Positions 20,691 to 48,505 of a DNA stretch of 64,000 nt are shown here, one piece after another (the first letter of the stretch is position 1; the number at the start of each line of letters is the position of its first letter). Made by a program: the position numbers and the translations under genes. Where the stretch lies: positions 36,177,739 to 36,241,738 of the forward strand of contig NC_079223.1 of NCBI RefSeq assembly GCF_029633865.1, given 5' to 3'. The notes under the pieces were generated by a model. That model saw nothing but the letters and a program-made list of their open reading frames with translations. It was not told where the DNA came from and searched no databases. Origin of the DNA: Lampris incognitus (lineage: Eukaryota > Chordata > Actinopteri > Lampriformes > Lampridae).

Positions 20691-22007
20691 GTGAGTCTAT
20701 TTGTCCCTCAGCAGCAACTAACTTGCATTCTAGTCATTTATCAATGTTTTAAGCGTCTAGGCTATGCAGTCATAATGTCAATCCTGGCAAAACTCGACCC
20801 CCCTTTTTTCTCAGCCCCCCCGCTCAAAATATGTTCCCGCGGCTATGCATCCTACCCTCACTCGTGAACAAGACCCCGAGATACTTGAACTCCTTCACTT
20901 GGGGCAGCAACTCATCCCCAACCCAGAGGGAGCAATCCACCATTTTCCGGTAGAGATCCATGACCTCAGACTTGGATGTGCTGACTCTCATCCCGGCCAT
21001 TTCACACTCAGCTGCAAACCGCCCCAGTGCGTGCCGGAGGTCGCGTTCTAATGAAGCCAACAAAACCACGTCATCTGTGAAGAGCAGAGATGCAATTGTG
21101 AGGTTCCCAAAGCACACACACTCCTCATCTTGGCTGCACCTTGAGATCCTGTTCATGAATATCACAAACAGAATCGGAGACAAGGGACAACCTTGGCGGA
21201 GTCCGACACCCACCGAAAACGTGTTTGCCTTTGTGCCAAGAATGCGGACACAGCTCTCACTTTGGTTATACAAGGACCGGGTAGCTTGTAGCAACTGTCC
21301 CGGTACCCCATACTCCCGCAGTACCCCCCACAGAGTGCCCCGGATTACATGGTTGTAAGCCTTCTCCAAGTCCACAAAACACATGTAGACTGGCTGGTCA
21401 AACTCCCGTGCCCCCCCCCCCACTTCCGCAAGGGTAAAGAGTTGGTCCGTTGTTCCACGGCCGGGATGGAATCCGTATTGTTCCTCCTGGATCTGAGGTT
21501 TGACAATCAGTCAGAGCCTCCTTTCGAGCACCCTAGAGCAGTGGTTCTCAACCTTTTTGGGGTCCTGGACCCCCTGCGTATTTTTGATCTACCCTGAGGA
21601 CCCCTCCACCTGATCTTGGGGGAGGGGGGTTGCAATTTGATAGAAACAGTAGAAACTGCATTTTAAATTGCATTATAGCATTTATTCACTCTTTGGGGCA
21701 AAAATAAGAGCTTTCAGTTGTAACTTAGATATAGTTAACAAAACAGAATTCTTATGCAGTAACTTTCAGATATATGTAACAAAACAGAATGTGTATTCAG
21801 TAACTTTCAGATATATGTAACAACAGAATTTTTATGCAGTAACTTTTAACAATGCAAACGGGAGCGAGATCTCGTATTAAAATACAATAAATTACACTTG
21901 TGAAAAATGTAATTAGAGAAAAAAGTCCTGTTACCCTTTATAGTTTAGGTAGATAAAGGTCTCAGTCACATTTGAGTAAAATAATCCTATTTCTATAAAT
22001 GTCATAG

Positions 22008-22223
22008 TGTGGTGACCCACATCTATATATCGAGAGACATTCACCTAAGAGGACGGTGTACCTTTAAGGGAAGAGGCGAGGGGTCAGATAATGCACTTCC
22101 GCTTCCGGTTCACAGTCAGTTCAGTGTCGTTGTCGAACGTATGACATGCAAAGTTGGAGCTAGTAAACTACCTCGACTACGTCTACTCTCACGTCTCCTG
22201 TCTCGTTGTTTTCTAACTCCACA
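22008..22223 (+). repeat. Left LTR of Gypsy A
   Basis: Begins TGTGGTGACCC and ends CTCCACA; 216 bp. Confidence 0.9.
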
Positions 22224-22260
22224 TTGGTGACCCCGACGTGATCGAACTACTAATACGAGT

Positions 22261-23010
22261 ATGTCTGACAACGACGACGCCGGTGCTAACAACATGGCTA
22301 TTGCTAACGCTAGCATTTATGCCGCTACTGTGAAGCTACCCGACTTTTGGCAGCATAATCCACGGCCGTGGTTTCAACATGTGGAAGCCCAGTTCCAGCT
22401 GAGAGGGATAACGCAGGATGCAACGCAGTACTTCCACGTAGTGGCGGCGTTAGACGCATCGACAACAGCGCGAGCAATGACACTGTTGGAAGCTCCGCCA
22501 GCTGCTGGCAAGTACGATGCTATAAAGACATTCCTCCTGAAACTATTTGAACTGTCGGAGCTGGAGAAGGCAGACCGTTTACTGTCCCCGAATGGCCTCG
22601 GCGACGGCAAACCGTCTGAGTTAATGGAAAAAATGCTGTCTGTGCTGGGATCGGCTGATCCGGCCTTTCTTTTCACACACATTTTTCTGAGGCAGCTCCC
22701 CGCACCTGTACGCACAGCACTGGCCAGTTCTCCTCTCGCCGCCTCCAAGGACTACCGTTCTCTGGCTGCTGAAGCAGACAGGGTTTTCCTGGCCAACCGG
22801 CAACAGTTTGTGCATGCCCTGCTACCCCACCAGACCGCCCCACCACCACCTGTGTACGACTATATGGACACCGCGGCTGCGGTGACAGCCCGCCGCCAAC
22901 CTGACGACGGGCTCTGTTATTACCATGCCAGGTTTGGGGCAAAAGCAAAACAGTGTCGCAAACCCTGCAGTTACAGGGTTCAGGGAAACGCCAAGGCCGG
23001 CGCTCGTTAA
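22261..23010 (+). pseudogene. gag of Gypsy A (fossil)
   Basis: Mag-type gag: KLPDFWQHNPRPWFQ near the start and a C-terminal variant zinc knuckle ([16 protein letters not shown]). Part of the LTR element at 22008-26448. Confidence 0.85.
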
Positions 23011-26000
23011 CGGCTATGGGCGCCGGCCGTGACTGCAAGCTGTTGTTCATCAGAGACTCCTTGTCGGGCCGACGGCTGCTGGTTGACTCTGGCGCTCAAC
23101 GCAGCATACTACCAGCACAAGCTGTGGACACGATGACCGACAGTCACGGCCCCCAGATGGACGCCGCCAACGGCACGTCCATTCGGACGTACGGTATCAG
23201 ACATGTAGACGTGTGTTTTGGCGGCCGACGTTTCGGCTGGGACTTTGTGATGGCTGCTGTATCCACCCCGCTCCTAGGTGCGGATTTCCTCTGTGCTTTC
23301 AACCTGCTGGTGGATGTTAAAAACTGTCGCGTGATTGATGCCGTCTCTTTTGCGTCATACCCCTGCACGCTTGGGGGCGCAGGAGCGCTGTGCCTCGCTA
23401 ACACACTCTCCACCGGGGATCCATACCAACGCCTGCTCGCAAATTTCCCCGAGCTCACCACACCCACCTTCTCCTCGGCGGTGGCCAAGCACGGCGTGGA
23501 ACATCATATCACCACAGTGGGCCCCCCAGTTTACGCCCGGGCCCGACGCCTCGACTCGGCCAAGCTCGCAATAGCCAGGGAGGAGTTTTCGACTATGGAG
23601 CGCCTCGGCATTGTCCGCCGTTCTGACAGTCCGTGGGCTTCCCCTCTTCACATGGTTACTAAGGCCGACGGGGGTTGGCGCCCGTGCGGGGACTACCGTC
23701 GCCTAAACAATGCCACGACCCCCGACCGGTACCCCATACCGCACATACAAGATTTCTCTACCCACCTGGCGGGCGCTGCCATCTATTCCAAAATTGACTT
23801 AGTGCGGGGGTATCACCAAGTGCCGGTCCACCCACTGGATGTCCCAAAAACGGCTGTCATCACACCCTTTGGGCTCTTTGAGTTCTTACGTATGCCTTTC
23901 GGCCTTAAAGGGGCGGCGCAGACGTTTCAACGCCTTATGGATTCTGTGCTCCGCGACATGCCATTTTTGTTTGTGTACTTAGACGACATCCTCGTGGCCA
24001 GCGCGTCGGCGGAGGAACACATGACGCACCTCAGACAGCTGTTCGACAGGCTCAGCGAACACGGCCTCATCATCAACCCAGCTAAGTGTCAGTTCGGGGA
24101 GTCATCCATCACCTTCCTCGGGCACCACATCACTCCACAGGGGGCCGTTCCCCTCCCTGCCAGGGTTGAGGCTGTCACCATGTTCCCCCGCCCCCGCACT
24201 GTACAGTCGCTGCAGGAATTCCTGGGCATGGTGAACTTTTATAACCGTTTCCTGCCCCGTGCCGCCCACATCATGCGTCCCCTGTATGAGGGCCTGCGGG
24301 GTAAGAAGTCTAAGGACGAGCTGGACTGGTCTTCGGGGATGGACGAGGCTTTTGTGGCCGCCAAGACCGCACTGGCCAACGCTGCGCTGCTAGCTCACCC
24401 GTCGCCTGCCGCCCCCATAGCCCTTACAACGGATGCCTCCGACTACGCCGTGGGGGCCGTGTGTGAGCAGTGGGTGGGGGGGGGGCTGGCAGCCGTTAGC
24501 GTTCTTCAGTAAACAACTCCGTGAGAGCGAGCGCAAATACAGCACCTTTGATAGGGAACTACTGGGTCTCTTCCTCGCAACCAGACACTTTAGGTTCCTA
24601 TTGGAGGGCCGACAGTTCACCGCTTTCGTGGACCACAAACCGCTGACGTTCTGTATGGCCAAAACCTCAGAACCGTGGTCTGGGCGTCAGCAGCGCCATC
24701 TCGCGGCGGTTTCCGAGTTTACCACGGACATACAACACGTGTCGGGCAAGGATAACTTCGTCGCCGACTGCCTTTCACGGGCGGTTGTTAACGCCGTTCA
24801 CTTGGGACTCGACTACGCCGCTATGGTAGCGGACCAAGCCAAGGACGCGACCGTTCAAGGCTACCGGTCGACCCCTACCTCGCTACCGCTGGAGGACGTG
24901 ACGTTCGACGCAGCCAACACCACCCTCCTCTGTGACATCTCCACCGGTCAACCGCGCCCCCTGGTGCCTACTTCCTGGCGGCGCCGAGTTTTCGACACCG
25001 TCCACGGCCTTTCCCACCCGGGAGTGAAGGCCTCGATCAAGCTGGTGAGCATCAAGTTCGTTTGGCCTGGGCTCCGTAAGGATGTTAGAGCCTGGGCTGG
25101 CTCGTGTGTGGCGTGCCAACGCGCCAAGGTGCACCGCCATACCAAGGCCCCTTTGGCGCCGTTTGTGGTTCCAGAGAGGCGGTTTGACCACGTCAATGTT
25201 GACCTGGTGGGTCCCCTGCCCCCCTCCCGTGGTTATACGTTCCTCCTCACTATTGTGGACAGGGCCACCAGGTGGCCAGAGGCTATTCCCTTGTCCTCCT
25301 AGACGGCAGCAGAGGTAGCACGGGCGTTCATCGGCTGCTGGGTGGCCCGTTTCGGCACGCCTGGTGACATCACGAGCGACCGGGGCTCCCAGTTTACCTC
25401 GGAGCTCTGGACTGCGGTCGCTGAGCACCTGGGGGTGAAGATCCACCGCACTACGGCGTACAACCCGCAGAGCAACGGACTTTGTGAGCGGTTCCATCGG
25501 GACATGAAAGCCGCTCTGCGGGCAAGCCTCACTGGCTGCGACTGGATGGACCGGCTCCCGTGGGTCATGCTCGGCCTGCGTTCGGCCCCGAAGGAAGACC
25601 TCCAGACCTCCTCCGCTGAGCTGGTGTATGGCCAGCCCCTGCAGGTTCCGGGGGAGTTTCTTCCGGATGCTACAGCTCCCTGGTCGGCCGCCTCTCACCT
25701 CAGTGCGTCCCGGAGCGCTGCCGGTGCCTTCGCTCCCGTTCTGATGTCTCAACACTGCCTCCCCCGGTCCTACGTCCCCAAGGATCTGCCATCGGCGAGG
25801 TACGTCTTCATTAGGCACGACAGCCATCGGTCCCCGCTGCAGCCCCCATACGACGGGCCCTTCCGCGTCCTGGAGGCGGGGGATAAGAACTTTGTGGTGG
25901 ACATGGGGGGCAGGCCGGAGCGGGTCGCTATAGACCGTCTCAAGCCCGCTCACTTGGACATTGGTGAGCCAATGCAATTGGCCCTACCCCCGCGGCGGGG

Positions 26001-26130
26001 GCGCCCTCCTAGGTCGGCCCCGGCACCTGCCTCTGTTCCTGCTTCGGCCCCATCTGTTTCCCCTCCTGTGAAGCGCAGCCGTTATGGCCGCAGGGTCCGC
26101 CTCCCGACTCGTCACCTGTTTTCCCCGTGA
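22953..26130 (+). pseudogene. pol region of Gypsy A (fossil, broken)
   Basis: Domains in order: aspartic protease (VDSGAQRS), reverse transcriptase (YLDD box), RNase H (DASDYAVGA), H2C2 zinc-binding and integrase core (SDRGSQFTSELW), then a Pro-rich tail. It carries about two interruptions and is not expected to be made as one protein. Confidence 0.85.
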
Positions 26131-26237
26131 CTTTGCACTATGTCATTGACTGTTCTGTTGTAGAGTCTATTTTTATGTTCATAACTTGCACTTTTGCTGT
26201 TTTGCATTGTTTTGTGTAGGTGAATTCTGGGGGGGCC

Positions 26238-26448
26238 TGTGTGGTAACCCACATCTATATATCGAGAGACATTCACCTAAGAGGACGGTGTACCTTTAAG
26301 GGAAGAGGCGAGGGGTCAGATAATGCACTTCCGCTTCCGGTACACAGTCAGTTCAGTGTCGTTGTCAGATGTATGACATGCTAAGTTGGAGCTAGTAAAC
26401 TACCTCGACTACGTCTACTCTCATGTCTCGTTGTTTTCTAACTCCACA
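26238..26448 (+). repeat. Right LTR of Gypsy A
   Basis: Begins TGTGGTAACCC and ends CTCCACA; 211 bp. It is preceded by gaattctgggggggcc. Confidence 0.9.
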
Positions 26449-26641
26449 ATAGGATCTTTTTTTTAAAGATATTTTATTTTCACCGACCCCTTGCAATTAC
26501 ACCACGGACCACTAGGGGTCCGCGGACCCCCGGTTGAGAAACACTGCCCTAGAGTATACTTTCCCAGGGAGACTGAGCAATGTGATGCCCCGATAATTGG
26601 AGCACACCCTCCGGTCCCCTTTTTTAAATTTATTATGAAAC

Positions 26642-26879
26642 TTTGGTGGACACGTATTGGGGATAGAATTCAACCCAGGAACTAAGGGTTAAGTCATGGT
26701 TGCCCTGGCAGGTTAACGCAGGGTGAAGTTATGGTTGTTCAGCCAGTTTTCTGGTTATTCTTGCCGCCTCCACTCAGTCGAGCTGTGGTTTTGTTGTCTC
26801 TCTGATTTACCGTTGATTAAAGAAAGTTGCCTACACGGCTAAAGTGTGAACCTACGGTCTTCGTTCCTTCGGCTCTACA
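26642..26879 (+). repeat. Left LTR of Gypsy B copy 1
   Basis: 238 bp, similar throughout to the LTRs at 42423-42663 and 46522-46762, with scattered differences. Confidence 0.88.
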
Positions 26880-26931
26880 CTGGTGACCCCGACATCGGTT
26901 TTCGGGTAAGTTTTCTGAAACCACACACATT

Positions 26932-27624
26932 ATGGCTACGAACGCCGTTGCAATTAAACTGCCGGAGTTTTGGGAGTCTTCCGCGGCTACATGGTTCGCA
27001 CAGGCTGAGGCACAGTTCGCGCTCAGAGACATAACAGCAGACGACACCAGGTACTACTACGTAGTGGCAGCGCTGGGGGGCGCTACGGCTTCCAGGATAA
27101 GCGGTTTCATAACCAACCCACCGGCCGATGGTAAATACGCCGCACTTAAAAATCTCCTCCTTGAAACTTTTGAACTGTCAACAACGGAGAGAGCACGTCG
27201 CCTCTTCGCAATTCAGGGCTTGGGAGATGGCAAACCATCGGAGCTAATGAGCAGGATGTTAAACCTACTGGGTCAAGAAAAGCCATGTTTCCTGTTTAGG
27301 GAGCTGTTTCTGCGCAACATGCCGCCCCACGTCCAGACTGCGCTCGCTAACTCCACCATCACTGATCCCCGTGAGCTGGCAAAGGAGGCTGACCGATTCT
27401 TCGTCGCTACACAACGTTCCTCCCATGCCGGGTTGCTGGCTCCTACCTTCACTGGCCCCCCGCCGACATCGCGGGCGTGGCCCGACGGTGGCGCCACAGC
27501 GTCAGACCGCTACAAGCCCTCTGGACTCTGTATGTACCACGCTCGATTTGATGCGAAAGCTAAACGGTGCCGTTCCCCCTGCAACTACAGGCCGACGGGA
27601 AACGAGAGGGCCAACACTCAGTAG
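26932..27624 (+). pseudogene. gag of Gypsy B copy 1 (fossil)
   Basis: Starts KLPEFWESSAATWFA within the first 25 residues and ends with the variant knuckle CMYHARF..AKRC..PC. Nearly identical to the gag of copy 2. Confidence 0.85.
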
Positions 27625-27764
27625 TGGCCATGAGTGTTGGCGATACGAGCAGGCTACTCTTCATCCTCGACACCATCTCCGGTCGGCGATTTCTCTGTGA
27701 CACGGGCGCACAGAGAAGCGTGCTCCCTGCTACTGACGTCGACATCATGGGCGGGGAGCGGGGC

Positions 27765-27957
27765 TGTAGTAGACCAACAGCGCTACCTAGTGGTGGTTAA
27801 GCTAGGCTCTCATATACCCCGGATGTTGACTGCTGTGACAGTCGGAGAGCTACAATAAAGAGGACAAGACGTTGGGAATTGGTCTTCGGCTCAAATCACT
27901 GTTATGGATATATTAGCAGTATAAAATACATCCAGATAATATAGCGAATATATTACA
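27765..27957 (+). repeat. Left LTR of element C
   Basis: 193 bp, TGTAGTAG to ATTACA, matching 30411-30605. Confidence 0.9.
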
Positions 27958-28119
27958 GTGGCGACGACGGATGGGATACCTTTAATGTGAGAAGGTAATC
28001 CCGGTAGTTAATAAAAGCGGACGAAGCAACGTGACGCTACAAGCTAGCTTCCAGCCAGCTAGCAAGAAAAGACTAGCTAGCCAAGCCAAGCACAAGCATG
28101 GCGCATTTCATCAGCAATA

Positions 28120-30246
28120 TTGCTAAATACAAGGAAGGTAAAGAGGACTTCGAGTCGTACCTTGAAAGATCTGTCGACCGTATTGCAGCCACTACACCAA
28201 CTCCTGAAGAAGGAAGTCGAATGGAAATGGACACCAGAGTGTGCAGCAGCATTCAAGGCTGCCAAAGAACAGTTAGTGAAAAGCTCAGTAGTAGTACACT
28301 ACGACACGCAGAAACCACTGAAATTAGCTTGTGACGCATCCCCTTATGGGATAGGGGCGGTAATGTCACACATAATGGAAAATGGGGACGAGAAACCAAT
28401 CGCCTTTGCGTCACGTACGTTGACAGAGGCAGAGAGTAAATATAGTCAGATAGAGAAGGAGGCGTTGGCCATAATATTTGGCGTGACCAAATTTCATAAA
28501 TATCTCTATGGCCGCAAATTCAGTTTAATAACTGACCACAAACCCCTCCTTGCCATCTTAGGACCCAAGTCAGAAATCCCTACACTAGCCGCTTTGCATA
28601 TGCAGAGATGGGCACTGAGGCTTATGGCTTATGACTACAGTATAGAGTACAGAACGTCAGCGGACAATGCAAATGCGGATGCGTTATCTAGACTGCCGGG
28701 GAAAGAAAAGGACAAAACAGCGGAGGAGAACAGCATTTTTTATTTCTCATTAGTAGATGCGCTACCCGTGCAGGCTACAGAGATTGCACAGAGCACTCTC
28801 AAGGACCCAGTCCTATGCAAGGTACTGGAACTGACCCGGTCTGGATGGCCAAGTTACATCAACAATGACACACTGAAACCGTACTTCAACCGAAGGAATG
28901 AACTGTCTGTGGAACAAGGATGCATTCTGTGGGGAATTCGAATTATCATCCCACCAGCACACAGAGAACAACTACTGTACGACCTACACCAAGGGTGCAG
29001 GATGAAAAGTTTGGCGAGGGGCTATTTATGGTGGCCTCAGTTGGACAGTGATATCGAACGTGCAGTACAGCAATGTGATGCTTGTCAGAGTGTGAGGAAG
29101 CTACCAGCAGTAGCACCACTACACTGCTGGCAGTGGCCTACGAGAGTGTGGCAGAGGCTACATATTGACTTTGCAGAGAAGGATCAGCAACACTTCCTAG
29201 TGTTAGTAGACAGTCATTCAAAATGGCTTGAGGTGATCCCCATGGCAACAACTACCGTCGCCAAAACGATCGAAGTGCTGCGGAGCATCTTTTCGTCCTA
29301 CGGTCTTCCTGAGGAGATCGTCTCGGACAACGGTCCACAATTCACCTCGCTGGAGTACAAAACATTCCTGAAAAGCAACGGCATTAAGCAGACCTTGGTG
29401 CCAGCTTACCATCCTGCTTCTAATGGTGCCGCAGAGAGAGCAGTCCAGACGGTGAAAGCTTCACTTCTGAAACAGCTGCTCGATGAGAAGAAACAAAACG
29501 TCACTATTACAGTAAAACACAGGCTCGCCAACTTCCTGTTGTCATACAGGACCACACCACACAGCGTTACAGGTTGCACACCAGCAGAACTGTTCCTCAA
29601 ACGTCAGTCTAGGACCAGGTTCAGCCTGCTGAAGCCAGACCTCGCTCGAGTGGTGGGGGACAAACAACAAAAGCAGAAGGACTATCATGACCAACCCGCC
29701 TCGAAGCTGAGACATCTGTCAGAGGGGGACTCAGTACTGATCCGAAACTTCCGTGGAGGAAAGGAGAGGTGGACGAAAGGGACAGTGGAAAAGAGACTCG
29801 GACCAGTCACCTACCTGGTGTGGAATGGAGTGAACCGACGTTCAGTCCACATTGACCATCTGCTGTTCGACCGACCCTCCAGTCCTCCTGAGGCATTTCA
29901 GTTTCAGGATGACCAGATGGGTATCAGCAACACCTACCCTGCAGTTGCGGATTTGGGGGGGAAAGGCACACCTGGAGCCATAGGTGCTAGCCCGTACTCA
30001 CCTGAAGATACACCCGTTCCAAGGATGCAGGCTCCGGAGAAGCTTGCAACACCCTTACGAGGTTCAGTGGGCAAGGCCGTGTCGCCTCCTCACCGAGCAT
30101 CCACTTCCCCTGAGGTGGTTGAGCGCCGATACCCTCAGAGAGAGAGGGCACCTCCAAAACGACTCTTTGTAAGATCAGCCAAGTTCCTGAATAAAAGAGT
30201 TCCTGAGAGACTAAATTGTTCAACTCCTGTTCAGAAAAAAATGTGA
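28120..30246 (+). pseudogene. pol remnant of element C (RNase H and integrase; fossil)
   Basis: A long open stretch with RNase H (ACDASPYGIGAV), the H2C2 zinc-binding region, integrase core (SDNGPQFTS) and a C-terminal IDHLL motif. The K02A2.6-like type of Gypsy pol. It is not a host gene: it lies wholly between the LTRs. Confidence 0.8.
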
Positions 30247-30410
30247 AAAACAGTTCCTGAGACTGATATGTAAATGGGCAAATGTGGGTCGAAGTGGGTT
30301 GTGTAACCAGTAATGACCAAGTAAAAGATGCTGAAAGTAATTTGCCATATCAGCATGTTTTAGAGTGATAATATTTTATTAGGGGAACTTCATAGTTTAA
30401 GGGGGAGGAG

Positions 30411-30605
30411 TGTAGTAGACCAACAACGCTACCTAGTGGTGGTTAAGCTAGGCTCTCATATACCCCGGATGTTGACTGCTGCGACAGTCGGAGAGCTACA
30501 ATAAAGAGGACAAGACGTTGGGAATTGGTCTTCGGCTCAAATCACTGTTATGGATATATTAGCAGTATAAGATACATCCAGATAATATATATCGAATATA
30601 TTACA
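30411..30605 (+). repeat. Right LTR of element C
   Basis: 195 bp. It differs from the left copy at about three bases and one small indel. Confidence 0.9.
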
Positions 30606-33565
30606 GGGGCCCCCAGTTGGCGACGGCTGACGGCAGCCCTATCCACACCTACGGCGTGCGGTCTGTAGAACTGTGTTTTGGTGGACAACGTTTCACGTGG
30701 GAGTTCGTCATGGCCAATGTAACGCTTCCCCTGCTCGGAGCTGATTTTTTGTGCGCTTACGGTTTGCTAGTGGACATTCAGAACAGCCGTCTGGTCGACG
30801 CCTTAACCTTCTCCTCCTTCGCATGTACGCGGGGGGAAGCGGCCTATGCAGGTCTAGCCAACTCTCTCTCAGAGGCAGACAAGTTCAACCGCCTCCTCGC
30901 TGAGTTCCCTGACCTCACCCAGCCTACCTTCTCTGCACCCGCCGCTAAGCATGGGGTGGAGCATCACATTGCTACGAAGGGGCCCCCGGTCTACGCCAGA
31001 GCCAGACGTCTCGACCCCGCCAAACTCGCCATTGCCAAGTCTGAGTTCGAGCACCTGGAACGCATGGGGATCATCCGCCGCTCTGACAGCCCGTGGGCGT
31101 CCCCACTCCACATCGTCGCTAAGCCTGATGGAGGTTGGCACCCATGCGGGGACTACCGCCGACTAAATGACGCCACCACGCCCGACCGCTATCCTGTCCC
31201 GCATATCCAGGACTTTTCTGCAAACCTGTCTGGCAAACGCGTCTTCTCAAAAGTCGACCTGGTCCGTGGTTATCATCAAGTTCCCGTGCACCCCTCGGAC
31301 ATCCCCAAGACAGCGGTGACTACCCCATTCGGCCTATTTGAATTCCTACGAATGCCATTTGGACTCAAAAATGCGGCCCAGTCCTTTCAGCGGCTGATGG
31401 ATGCAGTGCTCCGTGGCCTTCCTGTCATCATCGTATATTTGGACGACATACTCTTCGCCAGCGCCTCCGAGGAAGAACACCTGTCCCATCTTCACGCCCT
31501 CTTCACACGCCTCAGCCAGCATGGGCTGATCGTCAACACGGCGAAGTGCCGGTTCGGGCTGACGGCCACTGATTTCCTCGGGCACCGCATCACTGGGGAC
31601 GGGGCGGTCCCCCTGCCCTCAAAGGTGGAAGCAGTGGCGGCCTTTCCGCGCCCCCAAACAGCTCGTGCGCTCAGGGAGTTCGTCGGGATGGTGACATTCT
31701 ACCACCGCTTCATTCCCCGAGCCGCCTTTATCATCCAGCCACTGTACGAGGCGCTGAAAGGCAAGTCCCCCAACCAGGCGGTCGACTGGACAGCAGAGCG
31801 GGACCGTGCGTTCACCGAGACTAAAGCTGCGCTCTCCCAGGCTACCCTGCTAGCGCATCCTTCACCTACAGCGCCTATTTCCATAGCCATGGATGCATCG
31901 GACTATGCTGTTGGTGCGGTTCACGAGCAGTGGGTGGGGGGGGCTTGGCAGCCTTTGGCCTTTTTCAGTCGCCAACTTACACCCCGAGAGCGCAAGTATA
32001 GTACTTTTGACAGGGAACTACTCGGTCTCTGGCTCGCCGTCCGGCATTTCCGGTTCCTGCTAGAGGGCCGCGAGTTTACTGCGCACGTGGACCACAAGCC
32101 CCTCACGTTTGCCATGTCCAAGACGGCCGAGCCATGGTCCGCTCGCCAGCAGCGACAACTCTCCTACATTTCGGAATTCACTACCGACATCCAGCACGTC
32201 GCTGGTAAGTCTAACCAGGTAGCTGACTGCCTCTCTAGGGCAGTGATTGGAGCGGTCCACCTAGGCCTGGACTATGCACAGATGGCCGCTGACCAGGCCA
32301 CTGACCCGAGCATCCTCCGTCTCCGGACCTCCGACACGGGGCTCCGCCTGCAGGACGTTCCTTTCAGCGACACAGGTGTCACCCTCCTGTGTGACGTCTC
32401 CACAGGACAGCCCAGGCCCATCGTCCCGGACAGCTGGAGACGCCCCGTGTTTGAAGCTGTGCACGGCCTCTCTCATCCAGGCGGTAAGCCATCCGTGCGC
32501 CTGACCTCTGCTAAGTTTGTGTGGGAGGGACTTAAGAGAGATGTGAAAGTGTGGGCCGACTCGTGTGTTGCCTGTCAGCGGGCTAAGATACACCGCCACA
32601 TTAAGGCGCCCCTGGAACGCTTCGCAGTGCCGGAGAGACGATTTGACCATGTCCACGTCGACCTGGTCGGTCCCCTACCCCCCTCCCATGGGTTCACCTA
32701 CCTCTTCACTATGGTGGACAGGACTACGTGCTGGCCTGAAGCTGTTCCCCTGGCATCCACGACGTCTGCTGATGTGGCCCGGGCTTTTATTGGGTCGTCG
32801 GTCTCACGTTTCGGTACGCCTTCCGACCTTTCATCTGACCGCGGGCCACAGTTTACCTCAGAGCTATGGAATGCTGTGGGTGAGGCTCTGGGCGTCAAGC
32901 TTCACCGCACTACCGCCTACCACCCTCAGGCGAACGGCCTATGTGAGCGCTTCCACCGGTCCACGAAGGCTGCGCTTCGGGCTACTCTCAAGGACTGCAA
33001 CTGGGTCGACAAGCTCCCATGGTTCATGCTGGGCCTGCGGACCGCCCCGAAGGAAGACCTACAAGCCTCCTCTGCAGAGCTGATGTACGGCACGCCACTG
33101 CGAGTCCCAGGCGATTTCATGCCCAACGCAACGCATCCCTGGTCAGCTGTGGACCAACGAGCCTCCTTGCTGGACGGGGTCAGAGCTTTCACACCCGTCC
33201 CTACCGCCCAACACGGCGCTCCGGTGTCCCAGGTGCCCCCAGGTCTGCAGTCAGCGGACTACGTGTTCATCCATCACGACGCACACCGCCCCCCTCTGCA
33301 ACCCCCTTATGACGGCCCCTTCCGCGTCCTGGAACGGGGAACTAAGCACTTGGTGGTGGATTTTGGGGGCACGGCCGAGCATGTTTCAGTGGACCGAGTT
33401 AAACCCGCACACCTGGACTTGACGCAGCCGTTGGAGTTGGCCCAACCTCCTCGTCGCGGTCGTCCCCCGGCTCCGCCTCCTCCCCCCGTGGAGGCCCGCG
33501 CTGCCTCTTCTGCTCCTCAGGCCGACCTCCACAGGCCCGCGTCAATGTCTCCCAGAGACATTGAC
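30606..33565 (+). pseudogene. pol region of Gypsy B copy 1 (fossil)
   Basis: Reverse transcriptase, RNase H and integrase domains in the usual order, closely matching copy 2. Part of a copy that is broken by an inserted element and lacks its right LTR. Confidence 0.85.
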
Positions 33566-33574
33566 GCGGGCCTC
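33536..33574. repeat. Palindrome at the right end of Gypsy B copy 1
   Basis: Two perfectly complementary arms of about 18 bp (ggcccgcgtcaatgtctc and its reverse complement) around a 3-bp spacer. A second small inverted repeat (atgcatgt/acatgcat) follows at about 33588-33616. It suggests a fold-back or template-switch end. Confidence 0.85.
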
Positions 33575-33632
33575 TCTGGTAGGTGCTATGCATGTAAATT
33601 AACCAGATAACATGCATGACGCGTGTTTGTGG

Positions 33633-36549: not shown

Positions 36550-37665
36550 TCATACAGGATCTAACTCAGTCTGGCTTGTGGTAGCTGGACTTTTGTTCTG
36601 ATTAGGCTGTTGCTGGCGCATATGTCCTCTCCGTCTGGGTGGAGCCAGGTATTCAAACATGGAAGTATTGTGGGCAGAGAGCATGTTCTTGAGGTCAGAT
36701 GGCATGGGGTCAGACCAAAAGAAATCATGATTGAGCGCATCATCGCTGTCTGTGCGCTGTGCTGGGTCTAGCACCAGCAGTTTGTCAATTAGGTCTAGGG
36801 CATAAGGGTCTTTAACATAAGCTTTGAGCTTATCCTTGACTTTCCTCTTTTGGCCTTTAGGTAGTTCCATTTTCTGATAGAGCCCATATTTCATGTCCAC
36901 ACCAGGCCATACTTCAGCAGTGATGGATCCGCAAAGTTGGCTGATAAGAGTAAGCTGGTGCTGCTCAGTGTTCCCTTGCATAATAGGACATCTGGTCCAC
37001 AGCTCTGCCATGATGCAGCCTGCACCCCAAAGGTCAATTGGGGGTCCGTAGTCTCGTTCACCTAATAGCAGCTCTGGGGGTCTGTACCAGAGAGTGACCA
37101 CACGACTAGTGTAGCAGTTACCCTGGCTGATTTTGGCCAGATTAAATGCCCGTGCCAAACCAAAATCTGCCAGTTTCAGTACACCATCTCCGGTGATGAG
37201 CACATTGGCTGACTTCATATCTCTGTGGAGGATCTTGTTTCTGTGTATGTAGTACAGTCCATTGAGCAGCATCTGCATGACCTTCTTTATCTCTGCCAAG
37301 GTGAACCTGACATTTGCATTGCTTAAAAGCCCTGCCAGGTCATGCTTACAGAAGTCAAACACCAGGTAGATGCTCCCTTTGTATCTAGTAAATTGATTGG
37401 CTTCGGTTCGACAAATCTCAATCAGATTCACAACATTGTCATGTTTCAGATGCTGCAGGATCTTGATCTCCCTAAGAGCTGTGATCGGAAACCCTTCTTT
37501 CTCATTTTCCATCAAAACCTTCTTCAGTGCAACTTTCTTTCCAGTTTGTCTGTGCTTTGCTTTGAAAACTTCACCGAATGTCCCCTGGCCGATTTTAGCA
37601 AGCTTTTCATATTTGGACAACTCATCGCAGAAAGGAAATTCAACGCCGTCACAGTATTTCAACAT
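36550..37665 (-). CDS. cdk9: Intronless cdk9 (cyclin-dependent kinase 9) retrocopy, apparently intact
   Basis: A single open frame of 371 residues collinear with CDK9, the kinase of P-TEFb that phosphorylates RNA polymerase II and release factors. ATG 37665 is chosen because its context is ideal (gccaccATG), the length matches CDK9 (about 372) and VEFPFCDELSKYEKL follows at once. The frame is also open 23 codons upstream to 37734, probably old 5' UTR. Numbering from the 37734 ATG, kinase elements are present: G-loop GQGTFG (49-54), Lys71, PITALRE (83-89), HRD (170-172), DFG (190-192), T-loop Thr209 and WYRPPE. In the hinge, FDFC is followed by Lys instead of the usual Glu. The end is ..QTELDPV, where CDK9 usually ends ..FxRVF. 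Vertebrate cdk9 has several introns, so this is a retrocopy; expression is unknown. Confidence 0.85.
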   Translation of the reverse strand: MLKYCDGVEFPFCDELSKYEKLAKIGQGTFGEVFKAKHRQTGKKVALKKVLMENEKEGFPITALREIKILQHLKHDNVVNLIEICRTEANQFTRYKGSIYLVFDFCKHDLAGLLSNANVRFTLAEIKKVMQMLLNGLYYIHRNKILHRDMKSANVLITGDGVLKLADFGLARAFNLAKISQGNCYTSRVVTLWYRPPELLLGERDYGPPIDLWGAGCIMAELWTRCPIMQGNTEQHQLTLISQLCGSITAEVWPGVDMKYGLYQKMELPKGQKRKVKDKLKAYVKDPYALDLIDKLLVLDPAQRTDSDDALNHDFFWSDPMPSDLKNMLSAHNTSMFEYLAPPRRRGHMRQQQPNQNKSPATTSQTELDPV

Positions 37666-38240
37666 GGTGGCAAACTCCACATCTGGCTTTTCTGCCCCGA
37701 CAGCATTACTGGCCTTGTCCCGTTGCATTTCCATCTATTTGATGATGATGACGATGATTTATTTTGAACATGTAAATAAGCAGGATAGAACATACAGATG
37801 AGTCATTGCCAAAAATCTGAAGTGATCAACAAAATCGACACATCCAACTCAGCAAAGAAATTGCCTTATGCATCAAATTATTTGTTACATGTTCGAAAAG
37901 GAGTACGAGGAAGTATACACTTGTTTTTTTTTCCTACCTCTTCTCACCTACTCTTAGGCTAATTCAGCTACTATACATCTAAAACTCAATTACCACTGTA
38001 CTGTATAGTTCAAATTCAATGCAAGTTGTGCTGCACAATACAAACTCACCTACTGTGAACAATAAGAGAGAAGAAAAAAAACATCAAAAAGACATGAGAG
38101 AAAGAAAAAAAGAAAACACATCCTGTCATCTACCAAGAATAAACAAATCTCAATGCAACGTACAACCCAAATATCCACTCGGTGTCATAGAAAGAAAAAT
38201 GAAAAAAAAAATTAATAAATGTTTTTTAGATACATAAAAT
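37666..38240. other. Upstream flank of the cdk9 retrocopy; A-rich low complexity
   Basis: No promoter motif is recognised. A purine-rich run occupies about 38,060-38,220. A short gatgatgatgacgatgat stretch lies at about 37,740. Confidence 0.45.
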
Positions 38241-42283: not shown

Positions 42284-42422
42284 TAGAGATGTAACGGTAT
42301 GAAAATTTCTTATCACGATTATAGTGACCAAAATTATCACGGTTATCAGTATTATCGCGGTATTGTTAAAATGTGCTGAAAATGTTCAAAAAGTACTGAT
42401 ACACACACGGAAATCATTTCAC

Positions 42423-42663
42423 TGTGGTGGACACGTATTGGGGACAGAATTCAACCCAGGAACTAAGGGTTAAGTCATGGTTGCCCTGGCAGGTTAACGC
42501 AGGGTTAAGTTATGGTTGTTCAGCCAGTTTTCTGAGGATTCTTGCCACCTCCGCTCAGTCGAGCTGTGGCTTGGTTGTCTCTCGGATTTACCGTGGATTA
42601 AAGAAAGTTGCCTACACGGCTAAAGTGTGAACCTACGGTCTTCTCCGTTCCTTCGGCTCTACA
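42423..42663 (+). repeat. Left LTR of Gypsy B copy 2
   Basis: TGTGGTGG to CTCTACA, 241 bp. Confidence 0.92.
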
Positions 42664-42735
42664 CTGGTGACCCCGACGTCGGTTTTCGGATAAGTTTTCT
42701 GAAACCACACACATTATGGCTACGACGCCGTTGCA

Positions 42736-43407
42736 ATGAAACTGCCGGAGTTTTGGGAGTCTTCCGCGGCTACATGGTTCGCGCAGGCTGAGGCACAGTT
42801 CGCGCTCAGAGACATAACAGCAGACGAGACCAGGTACTACTACGTAGTGGCAGCGCTGGGGTGCGCTACGGCTTCCAGGATAAGCGGTTTCATAACCGAC
42901 CCACCGGCCGATGGTAAATACGCCGCACTTAAACATATCCTCCTTGAAACTTTTGAACTGTCAACATCGGAGAGAGCACGTCGCCTCTTCGCAATTCAGG
43001 GCTTGGGAGATGGCAAACCATCGGAGCTAATGAGCAGGATGTTAAACTTACTGGGTCAAGAAAAGCCATGTTTCCTGTTTATGGAGCTGTTTCTGCGCAA
43101 CATGCCGCCCCACGTCCAGACTGCGCTCGCTAACTCCACCATCACTGATCCCCGTGAGCTGGCAAAGGAGGCTGACCGATTCTTCGTCACTACACAACGT
43201 TCCTCCCATGCCGGGGTGCTGGCTCCTACCTTCACTGGCCCCCCGCCGACATCGCGGGCGTGGCCCGACGGTGGCGCCACAGCATCAGACCGCTACAAGC
43301 CCTCTGGACTCTGTATGTACCACGCTCGATTTGGTGCGAAAGCTAAACGGTGCCGTTCCCCCTGCAACTACAGGCCGACGGGAAACGAGAGGGCCAACAC
43401 TCAGTAG
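42736..43407 (+). pseudogene. gag of Gypsy B copy 2 (fossil)
   Basis: KLPEFWESSAATWFAQAEA at the start; variant knuckle [16 protein letters not shown] at the end. Confidence 0.88.
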
Positions 43408-46400
43408 TGGCCATGAGTGTTGGCGATACGAGCAGGCTACTCTTCATCCTCGACACCATCTCCGGTCGGCGATTTCTTTGTGACACGGGCGCACAGAGAA
43501 GCGTGCTCCCTGCTACTGACGTCGACATCATGGGCGGGGAGCGGGGCCCCCAGTTGGCGACGGCTGACGGCAGCCCTATCCACACCTACGGCGTGCGGTC
43601 TGTAGAACTGTGTTTTGGTGGACAACGTTTCACGTGGGAGTTCGTCATGGCCAATGTAACGCTTCCCCTCCTCGGAGCTGATTTTTTGTGCGCTTACGGT
43701 TTGCTAGTGGACATTCAGAACAGCCGTCTGGTCGATGCCTTAACCTTCTCCTCCTTCGCATGTACGCGGAGGGAAGCGGCCTATGCAGGTCTAGCCAACT
43801 CTCTCTCAGAGGCAGACAAGTTCAACCGCCTCCTCGCTGAGTTCCCTGACCTCACCCAGCCTACCTTCTCTGCACCTACCGCTAAGCATGGGGTGGAGCA
43901 TCACATTGCTACGAAGGGGCCCCCGGTCTACGCCAGAGCCAGGCGTCTCGACCCCGCCAAACTCGCCATTGCCAAGTCTGAGTTTGAGCACCTGGAACGC
44001 ATGGGGATCATCCGCCGCTCTGACAGCCCGTGGGCGTCCCCACTCCACATCGTCGCTAAGCCTGATGGAGGTTGGCGCCCATGCGGGGACTACCGCCGAC
44101 TAAATGACGCCACCACGCCCGACCGCTATCCTGTCCCGCATATCCAGGACTTTTCTGCAAACCTGTCTGGCAAATGCGTCTTCTCAAAAGTCGACCTGGT
44201 CCGTGGTTATCATCAAGTTCCCGTGCACCCCTCAGACATCCCCAAGACAGCGGTGACTACCCCATTCGGCCTATTTGAATTCCTACGAATGCCATTTGGA
44301 CTCAAAAACGCGGCCCAGTCCTTTCAGCGGCTGATGGATTCAGTGCTCCGTGGCCTTCCTTTCATCTTTGTCTATTTGGACGACGTACTCATCGCCAGCG
44401 CCTCCGAGGAAGAACACCTGTCCCATCTTCACGCCCTCTTCACACGCCTCAGCCAGCATGGGCTGATCGTCAACCCGGCGAAGTGCCGGTTCGGGCTGAC
44501 AGCCATTGATTTCCTCGGGCACCGCATCACTGGGGACGGGGCAGTCCCCCTGCCCTCAAAGGTGGAAGCGGTGGCGGCCTTTCCGCGCCCCCAAACAGCT
44601 CGTGCGCTCAGGGAGTTCATCGGGATGGTGACATTCTACCACCGCTTCATTCCCCGAGCCGCCTTTATCATCCGGCCACTGTACGAGGCGCTGAAAGGCA
44701 TGTCCCCCAACCAGGCGGTCGACTGGACAGCAGAGTGGGACCGTGCGTTCACCGAGACTAAAGCTGCGCTCTCCCAGGCTACCCTGCTAGCGGATCCTTC
44801 ACCTACAGCGCCTATTTCCATAACCACGGATGCATCGGACTATGCTGTTGGTGCGGTTCACGAACAGTGGGTGGGGGGGGCTTGGCAGCCTTTGGCCTTT
44901 TTCAGTCGCCAGCTTACACCCCGAGAGCGCAAGTATAGTACTTTTGACAGGGAACTCCTCGGTCTCTGGCTCGCCGTCCGGCATTTCCGTTTCCTGCCCA
45001 TGGTCCGCTCGCCAGCAGCGACAACTCTCCTACATTTCGGAATTCACTACCGACATCCAGCACGTCGCTGGTAAGTCTAACCAGGTAGCTGACTGCCTCT
45101 CTAGGGCAGTGATTGGAGCAGTCCACCTAGGCCTTGACTATGCACAGATGGCCGCTGACCAGGCCACGGACCCGAGCATCCTCCGTCTCCGGGCCTCCGA
45201 CACGGGGCTCCGCCTGCAGGACGTTCCTTTCAGCGACACAGGTGTCACCCTCCTGTGTGACGTCTCCACAGGACAGCCCAGGCCCATCGTCCCGCACAGC
45301 TGGAGACACCCCGTATTTGAAGCTGTGCACGGCCTCTCTCATCCAGGCGGTAAGCCATCCGTGCGCCTGACCTCTGCTAAGTTTGTGTGGGAGGGACTTA
45401 AGAGAGACGTGAAAGCGTGGGCCGACTCGTGTGTTGCCTGTCAGCGGGCTAAGATACACCGCCACATTAAGGCGCCCCTGGAACGCTTCGCAGTGCCGGA
45501 GAGACGATTTGACCATGTCCACGTCGACCTGGTTGGTCCCCTACCCCCCTCCCAGGGGTTCACCTACCTCTTCACTGTGGTGGACAGGACTACGCGCTGG
45601 CCTGAAGCTGTTCCCCTGGCATCCACGACGTCTGCTGATGTGGCCCGGGCTTTTATTGGGTCGTGGGTCTCACGTTTCGGTACGCCTTCCGACCTTTCAT
45701 CTGACCGCGGGCCACAGTTTACCTCAGAGCTATGGAATGCTGTGGGTGAGGCTCTGGGCGTCAAGCTTCATCGCACTACCGCCTACCACCCTCAGGCGAA
45801 CGGCCTATGTGAGCGCTTCCACCGGTCCATGAAGGCTGCGCTTCGGGCTACTCTCAAGGACTGCAACTGGGTCGACAAGCTCCCATGGGTCATGCTGGGC
45901 CTGCGGACCGCCCCGAAGGAAGACCTACAAGCCTCCTCTGCGGAGCTGGTGTACGGCACGCCGCTGCGAGTCCCAGGCGATTTCATGCCCAATGCAACGC
46001 GTCCCTGGTCAGCTGTGGACCAACGAGCCTCCTTGCTGGACGGGGTCAGAGCTTTCACACCCGTCCCTACCGCCCAACACGGCGCGCCGGTGTCCCAGGT
46101 GCCCCCAGGTCTGCAGTCAGCGGACTACGTGTTCATCCGTCACGACGCACACCGCCCCCCTCTGCAACCCCCTTATGACGGCCCCTTCCGCGTCCTGGAA
46201 CGGGGAACTAAGCACCTGGTGGTGGATTTTGGGGGCACGGCCGAGCATGTTTCAGTGGACCGAGTTAAACCCGCACACCTGGACTTGACGCAGCCGTTGG
46301 AGTTAGCCCAACCTCCTCGTCGCGGTCGTCCCCCGGCTCCGCCTCCTCCCCCCGTGGAGGCCCGAGCTGCCTCTTCTGCTCCTCAGGCCGACCTCCACAG

Positions 46401-46500
46401 GCCCGCGTCAATGCCTCCCGGAGACACTCCGGCCCCTGTTATCCGGAGCCGCCGCGGACGGCCTGTCGTCCCCCCGCGCCTGCCTGACTTCGATTACTAG
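43350..46500 (+). pseudogene. pol region of Gypsy B copy 2 (fossil)
   Basis: Protease (CDTGAQRS), reverse transcriptase (YLDD), RNase H (DASDYAVGA), H2C2 and integrase ([12 protein letters not shown]), then a Pro-rich tail ending before gcgaattctggg. Broken by about one or two changes. Confidence 0.88.
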
Positions 46501-46521
46501 GGCGAATTCTGGGGGGGCTCA

Positions 46522-46762
46522 TGTGGTGGACACGTATTGGGGACAGAATTCAACCCAGGAACTAAGGGTTAAGTCATGGTTGCCCTGGCAGGTTAACGCA
46601 GGGTTAAGTTATGGTTGTCCAGCCAGTTTTCTGAGGATTCTTGCCACCTCCGCTCAGTCGAGCTGTGGTTTGGTTGTCTCTCGGATTTACCGTGGATTAA
46701 AGAAAGTTGCCTACACGGCTAAAGTGTGAACCTACGGTCTTCTCCGTTCCTTCGGCTCTACA
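46522..46762 (+). repeat. Right LTR of Gypsy B copy 2
   Basis: TGTGGTGG to CTCTACA, 241 bp, about 99% like the left LTR. Confidence 0.92.
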
Positions 46763-47518
46763 TCACCAAGTTTTATTTTGAAAACCACAAATAAAATTAG
46801 CAGCACTATGCACTTTTTGTTTGCATAAACATTAAAATAATAAAAATAAATAAAATAATAACATTCCTTATGTAAACATATGAAAAAAACATACAAATGT
46901 GCATTAAAGATGTCACCTTGCGGCCATGAGAGGTAACTGCACTTTTGCGCATTACAAATAAGAAAACAGCAACCAAAAAGAAATGTCTTCACATTTTAAT
47001 AAGCTTTGGATATAATCTGCATTAGGAATGCTGTTTTGGTATAGATACGCATATGAAACAGTTTTATTTAGCTCAGTGCTCATGTTGAACATTAGGGCTA
47101 CTGTCACTTTAAGAAGATCGCAAATTTCTGTGTACGTGAACCAGGATGCGTCTAGATTTGTTAGTTTTGAGTCGGCGGTGATTTTGGAGACTGAAGCTAT
47201 ACAGTTTTCTTACCGTAGCCGTAGTAATAACGTGGCAGCAATAGCCAGCCTTAGTTATTGTTTAGGAAATTATTATTTGATTACTCCTGTATGAAGATGT
47301 CGCTGTGGAACCGGAATACATTTTCGTTTTGTTATCTTTTTACACCGGAGTCCTGTGGAGGTTTTTTCCTTGCTTTTCCTTAAGAACGTACTACGCACGA
47401 GTAGCTAACTTTAGCCAGTGGAACGGACCGTCGGCCCTCACAAAGAGTAACATTTGGTTACATGAAAGCTCAAGTTTACATTATTGACAAGCTATTAGCA
47501 AGTTAGACCTGCAAACCA

Positions 47519-47947
47519 TGACATTTTCCCCCATTCGGGGGACAAGGCAACCACAAGAACTGCCGCGGCCGGGAAGCGAACCCGTATCGCCCGCACCGCA
47601 GGAGACGTCGCTAACCGCTCGACTAAATGGTCAGAGCCGCGAGGTAGCGGCCAGCGTGTCTCCTTATCCATGCACGTTACACTACCCCTCCTCCTTCGGG
47701 AAGCGCGTCCCCGCGCTTAAGCATATCAGCTCCTTCACGCCTCAGGGCGCCTACGCTTCCGATGGCCTTACGGTCGCTCCATCCCACTTCTGACACCAAT
47801 GTAGCGGATTCGGGGGACAACGCAACCACAGGAACTGCCGCGGCCGGGAAGCGAACCCGTATCGCAGGAGACATCGCTAACTGCTCGACTAAAGGGTCAG
47901 ACCCGCGAGCCAGCGGCCAGCGTGTCTTCTTATCCATGCACGTTACA
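47519..47947 (-). mobile_element. TRIM-like miniature LTR element whose LTRs contain a tRNA-like core
   Basis: Read on the minus strand. The first LTR (47947-47800, 148 bp) runs TGTAACG..CGCTACA. It is followed directly by ttggtgtcagaagtgggat, which fits a primer site for tRNA-Leu. About 118 bp of internal sequence with no coding follows, then a purine tract (aaggaggaggggtag) and the second LTR (47681 to about 47519). Each LTR has an A-box-like TAGTCGAGCRGTTAG and, roughly 35 nt on, a B-box-like gggttcgcttccc. No clear target duplication. Non-coding fossil. Confidence 0.75.
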
Positions 47948-47982
47948 TTATCTTGCATTCGCTGTAAAGTTGTGGATGGTGG

Positions 47983-48180
47983 TCACGGACTCGTAAGATT
48001 AGAAGTATTGCCCCCTTTCGCAGCGATTTTCTTTCTGCATGTTCTGCAGACAGGGTAACCATCTTCGATCAGTTTTCCCTCAGCACTCTTATAAAAACCA
48101 AAATACGGCCACACTTCAGACTTAGTCCTCTTAGTAGGCGAAAAAATCTCCCGAGCGCCGTCACTGCCTGTGCCTTCCAT
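47983..48180 (-). pseudogene. BED-type zinc finger remnant of hAT transposase
   Basis: SEVWPYFGFYKSAEGKLIED then CRTCRKKIAAKGGNTSNL: the ZBED/hAT N-terminal DNA-binding finger, with the Cys pair visible and the final His pair missing. The rest of the transposase is absent. Confidence 0.8.
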
Positions 48181-48367
48181 GTTTCATTGAGGCAAAACAA
48201 ACCCGCTGCGTCTGAGAGACTATGCTGGACAGTATTTACCGTGAGGTTTTCAAAGCGCGGTAATCAAACACGGTTTTAACGATAATTAAAATTTAAAACG
48301 GTAATACTAACCGTCGGGAATTTTACCGCGGTTAATCATTAAAGCGGTGTTAACCTGTTATTTTTTT

Positions 48368-48470
48368 GCCCGGTGCGGGATTCGATACTAGGTGTATTGC
48401 ACCAGAAGGCGACGTCACTAACCGCTCGGCTAAAGGGTCAGACTCATTAGCTAAGGACTAAACGTGTCTT
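48368..48470 (-). repeat. Diverged relative of the TRIM LTR (tRNA-like core)
   Basis: The minus strand shares GTCTGACCCTTTAG, CGAGCGGTTAG and GACACG with the TRIM LTR, with a B-box-like tatcgaatcccgc. It lies just inside the hAT end. Probably a solo LTR or a related SINE; ends are not defined. Confidence 0.5.
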
Positions 48471-48505
48471 ATTAGTAGTTTACACCGGTAACCGTTACAT
48501 CCCTA

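What the first reader, a model, noticed from the sequence alone, without database searches (positions are those of the whole stretch)
47519..47947. Miniature LTR element whose LTRs hold a tRNA-like Pol III promoter
Two LTRs with TG..CA ends, an adjacent tRNA-Leu primer site, a purine tract and only about 118 bp of non-coding interior make a TRIM. The LTR core has A- and B-box-like motifs at tRNA spacing. I know of plant Cassandra TRIMs with 5S rRNA in the LTR; a fish TRIM with tRNA-like LTRs would be a parallel and may be undescribed.
Basis: partly seen in the sequence, partly recalled or inferred. Interest (0 to 1): 0.75.

Follow-up and report, generated by a model that had tools for sequence, protein, structure and literature searches.

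The report
Fish mini-retrotransposon with tRNA-like ends
A short, protein-less jumping element with a tRNA-like sequence in both of its ends is present in very many copies in this fish-like genome; it is real, but it belongs to a kind (Helenus) that was described in 2024.

Summary
On the minus strand, 47533-47947 holds a 5' LTR (148 bp), a primer site complementary to the genome's own tRNA-Leu(CAA), a 118-bp interior, a purine tract and a 3' LTR. The 3' LTR lost its last bases in a small deletion, so 47519 is not its end. The genome holds 745 exact copies of the primer-site junction and 1707 of an LTR core (reversed-pattern controls 0). Sampled copies are paired, many carry 4-bp duplications at an RTAY target, and a pattern for the same insertion site without the element occurs 52 times. 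Two independent SINEs are excluded.

The kind is not new: Kojima 2024 (PMC10886601) named TRIMs with tRNA-like LTRs 'Helenus', including zebrafish LTR-11_DR with thousands of LTRs and tandem arrays. This is a new member, or a relative already covered by that lineage; Repbase was not available to decide.

What I add: a second co-resident family with another primer site; a candidate autonomous Ty3/gypsy partner sharing primer site, LTR ends, purine tract and target; and no T4 Pol III terminator in nearly all main-family copies sampled. Pol III transcription is inferred, not shown.

The parts
47800..47947 (-). 5' LTR, 148 bp (157 in 59 of 68 LTRs measured; 9-bp internal deletion here)
47533..47681 (-). 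3' LTR, last 8 bases lost in an approx. 52-bp deletion at a GAAT repeat
47682..47799 (-). non-coding interior, 118 bp
47781..47798 (-). primer-binding site TGGTGTCAGAAGTGGGAT, complementary to the 3' end (with CCA) of tRNA-Leu(CAA)
   Evidence: tRNA-Leu(CAA) gene in L096 (G000:C3:14301330-14301550)
47682..47696 (-). polypurine tract AAGGAGGAGGGGTAG next to 3' LTR
   Evidence: 1363 exact copies of the commoner form AAGGAGGGGGGTAG joined to TGTAACG
47881..47891 (-). A-box-like motif in 5' LTR
47847..47857 (-). B-box-like motif in 5' LTR (1 mismatch)
47615..47625 (-). A-box-like motif in 3' LTR
47572..47582 (-). B-box-like motif in 3' LTR (1 mismatch)
48348..48484 (-). solo LTR of a second TRIM family (F2) with the same tRNA-like half; inserted in the same DNA transposon
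   Evidence: empty site in L003 and L004
42284..48505 (.). hAT-like DNA transposon (ends TAGAGATGTAACGGT / ACCGTTACATCCCTA; hAT by recall) that carries this TRIM copy; itself interrupted by a gypsy element at 42423-46762
   Evidence: 8-bp duplication CTTGACAG around the copy in L004

Best explanation
It is a TRIM of the Helenus kind: a non-coding LTR retrotransposon of about 430 bp whose LTRs carry a tRNA-like internal promoter. Shown here: paired LTRs, tRNA-Leu primer site, purine tract, integration as one unit with a 4-bp duplication at an RTAY target, at least 745 primer-site junctions and 1707 LTR cores, tandem LTR-interior-LTR arrays. Inferred: Pol III starts just upstream of the A box in the 5' LTR and reads through primer site, interior, purine tract and 3' LTR. 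Because nearly all main-family copies sampled have no T4 run inside, the RNA probably ends in flanking DNA. A Ty3/gypsy element then packages it, reverse-transcribes it from tRNA-Leu and integrates it. The best partner candidate is the gypsy family seen at L072/L074.
For: 745 exact 28-bp PBS junctions, 1707 exact LTR cores, 1363 exact PPT/LTR junctions, control 0 each. Exact 4-bp duplications in 20 of 30 groups of two or more LTRs (shuffled pairing mean 8.2, maximum 15 in 2000 shuffles). These 30 come from a score-ranked list; they hold two arrays twice, three copies inside one DNA transposon, and L022 and L023 share a 5' flank. In 13 of the first 15 places in contig order: 13 of 13 have two LTR matches (one partial in three) and 6 have a clean duplication (the script flagged 7, but L050 has a truncated 5' LTR). 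RTAY target: 33 of 48 5' flanks and 41 of 49 3' flanks kept by the script's filters, background 1.4%. Empty-site pattern: 52 places within two mismatches, 7 exact, control 0 (not fetched). PBS matches a tRNA-Leu(CAA) gene of the same genome. Partner: same 18-nt PBS, LTR TGTAGCG..TTCGCCACA against TGTAACG..TTCGCTACA, PPT GGAGGGGGTAA against GGAGGGGGGTAG and duplication ATAA in one copy, RTAY in 8 of 11 flanks, RT, RNase H and integrase domains. LTR conservation over 31 rows (30 diverged plus the reference): ends 0.86 and 0.93, B box 0.88, A box 0.79, positions 111-140 0.52.
Against: No transcript data. No tRNA-finder or Rfam hit. Exact B box in 0 of 102 main LTR hits (85 of 102 within one mismatch; exact A box 87 of 102; overlapping loci counted twice); among 30 diverged LTRs, A box 23, B box within one mismatch 19, exact 1. 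T4 is absent from 101 of 102 main LTR hits and 35 of 35 interiors, though present in 5 of 30 diverged LTRs, so the main family lacks a Pol III stop. The A box is not more conserved than its neighbour 48-56 (0.79 against 0.82). A second Leu-primer gypsy family (L056-type) also targets RTAY in 6 of 8 flanks (counted by eye), so the target alone does not single out the partner. The TRIM interior shares only the primer site with the L072/L074 gypsy (one further 20-base match in L072 lies in an F2 TRIM there).
Confidence: 0.85

Rival explanations
1. An ordinary Pol II-driven TRIM: the tRNA-like stretch is a relic of a SINE captured by an ancestral LTR and is no longer a promoter.
For: The B box departs from the recalled canonical motif in all 102 main LTR hits, no T4 in 101 of 102, no tRNA-finder hit.
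Against: A- and B-box-like motifs at tRNA-like spacing persist in diverged LTRs, and a second family (F2) keeps the A-box half; positions 111-140 diverge much more.
Confidence: 0.25
2. Two independent SINE insertions that happen to lie side by side.
For: tRNA-like sequence; SINEs are common in fish (recalled).
Against: Primer site and purine tract in hundreds of places, shared 4-bp duplications around the pair, a site pattern without either LTR.
Confidence: 0.01
3. A different Leu-primer gypsy lineage (L056-type, L064 or another) is the partner rather than the L072-type.
For: 1082 further Leu-primer junctions in the genome; of 30 sampled, 13 are diverged TRIMs (11 by an LTR match reaching the primer site, L076 and L078 by eye) and 17 are not. 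L056-type also targets RTAY; L064 has the same T spacer as the TRIM.
Against: L056-type LTR ends in CGACA with a 2-base spacer, unlike the TRIM; L072-type matches better at both ends and the purine tract. L064 was not followed to its 3' LTR.
Confidence: 0.35

Closest known systems
Helenus (Kojima 2024), in particular zebrafish LTR-11_DR and its fish relatives
   Same: TRIM, tRNA-like LTR, PBS and PPT, 4-bp TSD, tRNA-Leu among vertebrate primers, high copy number, tandem arrays.
   Different: Sequence relation to LTR-11_DR untested (Repbase and the supplement were not available). Box A here is TAGTC, not the paper's common TRGCY; the second family has TAGCC.
Cassandra (plant TRIM with 5S rRNA in LTR)
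   Same: Small-RNA-derived promoter in a TRIM LTR; tandem arrays (title of PMC7215508 in the listing).
   Different: tRNA-like, not 5S; no T4 terminator in nearly all main-family copies sampled, whereas Kojima states that Cassandra RNA ends in the 5S of the 3' LTR.
tRNA-derived SINEs (SINE2)
   Same: A/B-box tRNA-like module.
   Different: LTRs, PBS, PPT and 4-bp integrase-type duplication instead of LINE-type tail and target-primed insertion.

Membership tests
Helenus | TRIM: two LTRs, no protein coding, under 1000 bp | tested here: met
   157-bp LTR in 59 of 68, 117-bp interior in 27 of 35
[quoted passage not shown] most have TRGCY) | tested here: met
   CGG and GGTTC present; TRGCY off by one base in this family; exact A box 87 of 102, B box within one mismatch 85 of 102; no tRNA-finder hit
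Helenus | PBS complementary to a tRNA | tested here: met
   tRNA-Leu(CAA) gene L096: ARAGORN with introns and Rfam 48.8 bits; ARAGORN without introns found none, and the other 3 of 4 fetched sites were not recognised as tRNAs
Helenus | PPT next to 3' LTR | tested here: met
Helenus | 4-bp TSD (animal Helenus) | tested here: met
   20 of 30 groups, 6 of 13 in contig order, empty site
Helenus | dependence on a Gypsy element | tested here: inconclusive
   shared PBS, LTR ends, PPT and target with L072-type gypsy; no functional test
Helenus | Pol III transcription (not validated for Helenus in the paper either) | not testable with these tools
   no RNA data
LTR-11_DR lineage | sequence homology to LTR-11_DR | not testable with these tools
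   Repbase not held; supplement look-ups capped at 0
Cassandra | 5S rRNA sequence in LTR | tested here: not met
   no Rfam hit at gathering score in the window
SINE | independent LINE-type insertions | tested here: not met

The most novel reading that the evidence does not exclude
The L072-type Ty3/gypsy family is the autonomous partner of a vertebrate Helenus, recognising only primer site, LTR tips and purine tract, and may be the first one supported by more than the primer site (the supplement of Kojima 2024, which compares vertebrate primer sites, was not read). The Helenus RNA has no Pol III stop of its own and runs into flanking DNA, so strand transfer uses an internal R region.
Probability: 0.35. 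Interest if true: 0.45.

Novelty: new member of a known kind. Interest (0 to 1): 0.3.

Why it matters
It shows the Helenus type as a large family in a genome that also holds a gypsy family with matching primer site, LTR tips, purine tract and target. That makes the open question of who mobilises Pol III-type TRIMs, and through which short signals, easier to test. Two families with different primer sites sharing one tRNA-like half also bear on how such LTRs arose.

Tried and rejected
Two-SINE reading: rejected (empty site, paired copies). A functional tRNA: rejected. RNA structure: the minimum-energy fold of one LTR (L015) is a long hairpin, not a cloverleaf (z -2.5), but its pairs 18-82 are not kept above shuffles (0.819 against shuffle maximum 0.826). 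A short hairpin at LTR positions 26-44 is kept in 203 of 228 cells (0.89) against shuffle maximum 0.877, on related sequences only, so weak. LTR pairs more alike within than between copies: median 3.8% against 5.1%, own partner ranked first in 6 of 25, suggestive only. F2 primer: a tRNA-Leu of another isoacceptor is recalled, but 0 of 6 fetched loci (of 7 places) gave a tRNA. Zebrafish tRNA expression paper PMC11417395: 4 passages read, nothing on these LTRs.

Full report
What is there. The minus strand of 47533-47947 reads LTR, primer site, interior, purine tract, LTR. The LTRs are 148 and 149 bp here and 157 bp in 59 of 68 LTRs measured; the interior is 118 bp here and 117 bp in 27 of 35. 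The 3' LTR lost its last 8 bases in a deletion of about 52 bp between two GAAT words, seen by comparison with L003.

It is a family. The genome that holds the window (1.48 Gb, 537 contigs, unnamed) has 745 exact copies of TTGGTGTCAGAAGTGGGATGGAGCGACC, 1707 of a 27-bp LTR core and 1363 of the purine-tract/LTR junction, with zero in each reversed-pattern control. A DNA search with the whole element gave 3699 first-look candidates, of which 40 were scored; its 47 matches are the window itself, 45 nearly full-length ones at 90-94% identity, and one 50-base piece. Arrays of LTR-interior-LTR-interior-LTR occur (L007/L030, L017/L025, L023, L031, L033, L036, L037), and one LTR-only array of 9.7 units of 142 bp (L054). 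Exact-pattern counts miss mutated copies, so they are lower bounds.

It inserts as one unit. Of 30 groups with two or more LTRs, 20 carry identical 4-bp flanks; shuffled pairing gives 8.2 on average and at most 15 in 2000 shuffles. That set is the top of a score-ranked list; it holds two arrays twice, three copies inside one DNA transposon, and two loci (L022, L023) that share a 5' flank. Of the first 15 places in contig order, 13 were fetched as L038-L050 (the other two lie in L032): 13 of 13 have two LTR matches on one strand, one of them partial in three loci, and 6 have clean 4-bp duplications. Targets are RTAY: 33 of 48 5' flanks and 41 of 49 3' flanks, background 1.4%; the script kept flanks next to a TGT start or CA end, once each, and dropped those that continue into element sequence. 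The window copy, L003 and L004 lie in a hAT-like DNA transposon with an 8-bp duplication in L004. The site without the TRIM, GAATGCAAGATAAGTTAACTTTTAGC, occurs 52 times within two mismatches, 7 exact, control 0; those places were not fetched. L003 has ATAA before the element and TAA after it, one A short of a perfect duplication. LTR pairs differ by 1.3-9.5%, with the window pair the most diverged of 25.

Primer. The PBS complements the 3' end plus CCA of tRNA-Leu(CAA), a gene found in this genome with a 17-nt intron (L096). ARAGORN without introns missed it, and three of the four loci fetched for this test were not recognised as tRNAs.

The tRNA-like part. A box TAGTCGAGCGG and B box GGTTCGCTTCC start 43 nt apart. 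The A box is exact in 87 of 102 main LTR hits; the B box is never exact there, and within one mismatch in 85 of 102. Among 30 diverged LTRs the figures are 23, 1 and 19. In 31 rows (30 diverged LTRs plus one reference, median pairwise identity 0.78) the LTR ends and the B box are the most conserved parts, and the A box is about average. No T4 run occurs in 101 of 102 main LTR hits or in any of 35 interiors, but 5 of 30 diverged LTRs have one; in 30 loci the first T4 downstream of the element lies 9 to 1129 bases away, with none in the flank held in two. If Pol III transcribes the main family, termination must lie outside or use another signal.

A second family. The window stretch 48348-48484 is a solo LTR of another TRIM (F2). 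In L072 this family has two 135-bp LTRs, an interior starting TTGGTGGCAGCGGTGGGAT, and ATAT on both sides. F2 shares with the first family the stretch from LTR position 16 to about 85-112, including the A box. Its junction TTACATTGGTGGCAGCGGTGGGAT occurs 1726 times, control 0, though other elements with this junction cannot be excluded. Its insertion in the hAT-like transposon has an empty counterpart in L003 and L004. Its primer tRNA was not confirmed.

Candidate partner. Of 30 further Leu-primer loci (from 1082), 13 are diverged TRIMs (11 by an LTR match reaching the primer site, two by eye) and 17 are not. One family (L072, L074; 609 first-look candidates, 40 scored) has 327-bp LTRs TGTAGCG..TTCGCCACA, the same 18-nt PBS, PPT GGAGGGGGTAA, and ATAA on both sides in L072, the one copy seen at both ends. 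Pieces of it, searched apart, match reverse transcriptase, RNase H and integrase domains; a gag-like piece matches nothing in Pfam at E 0.001. In L072 another gypsy fragment seems to be inserted (by eye), so assigning the integrase to this family is an inference from its place before the 3' LTR. Its 5' flanks are RTAY in 8 of 11 (one truncated locus dropped, one duplicate merged, L072 added). A second Leu-primer family, L056-type, is RTAY in 6 of 8 but has a different LTR end and spacer. No blastn match beyond the primer site links the TRIM interior to either.

What is known. Kojima 2024 (PMC10886601; outline, parts 1-4 of 6 of the text, and the figure legends and tables read; the rest and the supplement not) describes Helenus: TRIMs with tRNA-like LTRs in fungi, animals and a plant, 4-bp duplications in animals, tRNA-His, -Leu or -Lys primers in vertebrates, zebrafish LTR-11_DR with 5575 LTRs and 2618 interiors, tandem arrays, and relatives in Cypriniformes, Hemibagrus and Chanos. 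It infers mobilisation of animal Helenus by Gypsy from primer-site similarity and calls such elements TRIMp3; Pol III function is stated as unvalidated. Five searches of the paper library (20 of 349, 6 of 6, 1 of 1, 4 of 4 and 10 of 49 papers listed) showed no other paper on this kind in their listings, apart from Cassandra and general TRIM work. The present element meets every Helenus feature that could be tested; dependence on Gypsy stays open.

Verdict. A well-founded observation of an already described kind. The added points (second family, partner candidate, missing terminator) are useful but not transforming.

Noticed in passing
window 48348-48484 (-); L072, L078, L041, L021, L018: Second TRIM family with the same tRNA-like half but another primer site (TGGTGGCAGCGGTGGGAT, seen in L072 and L078); 1726 exact junctions.
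   Followed up: partly
window 42284-48505; L003; L004: hAT-like DNA transposon that carries the TRIM at three loci (window, L003, L004); the site pattern without the TRIM occurs 52 times.
   Followed up: partly
L054:1550-2930: Satellite-like tandem array of 9.7 LTR-only units of 142 bp, running up to a primer site.
   Followed up: no
window 42423-46762, 22007-26448, 26640-33610: Gypsy regions; in the first two the primer site reads TGGTGACCCCGACGT, unlike tRNA-Leu, and the 4-bp duplications read by eye are TCAC and ATAG. The third was not looked at for this.
   Followed up: no
window 36550-37734 (-): Uninterrupted 394-aa kinase frame that looks like CDK9 by eye (no database search); an intronless retrocopy is possible.
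   Followed up: no
LTR positions 26-44 (window 47904-47922 and 47638-47656): Short hairpin just upstream of the A box, partly kept by paired changes among diverged LTRs; weak evidence.
   Followed up: partly
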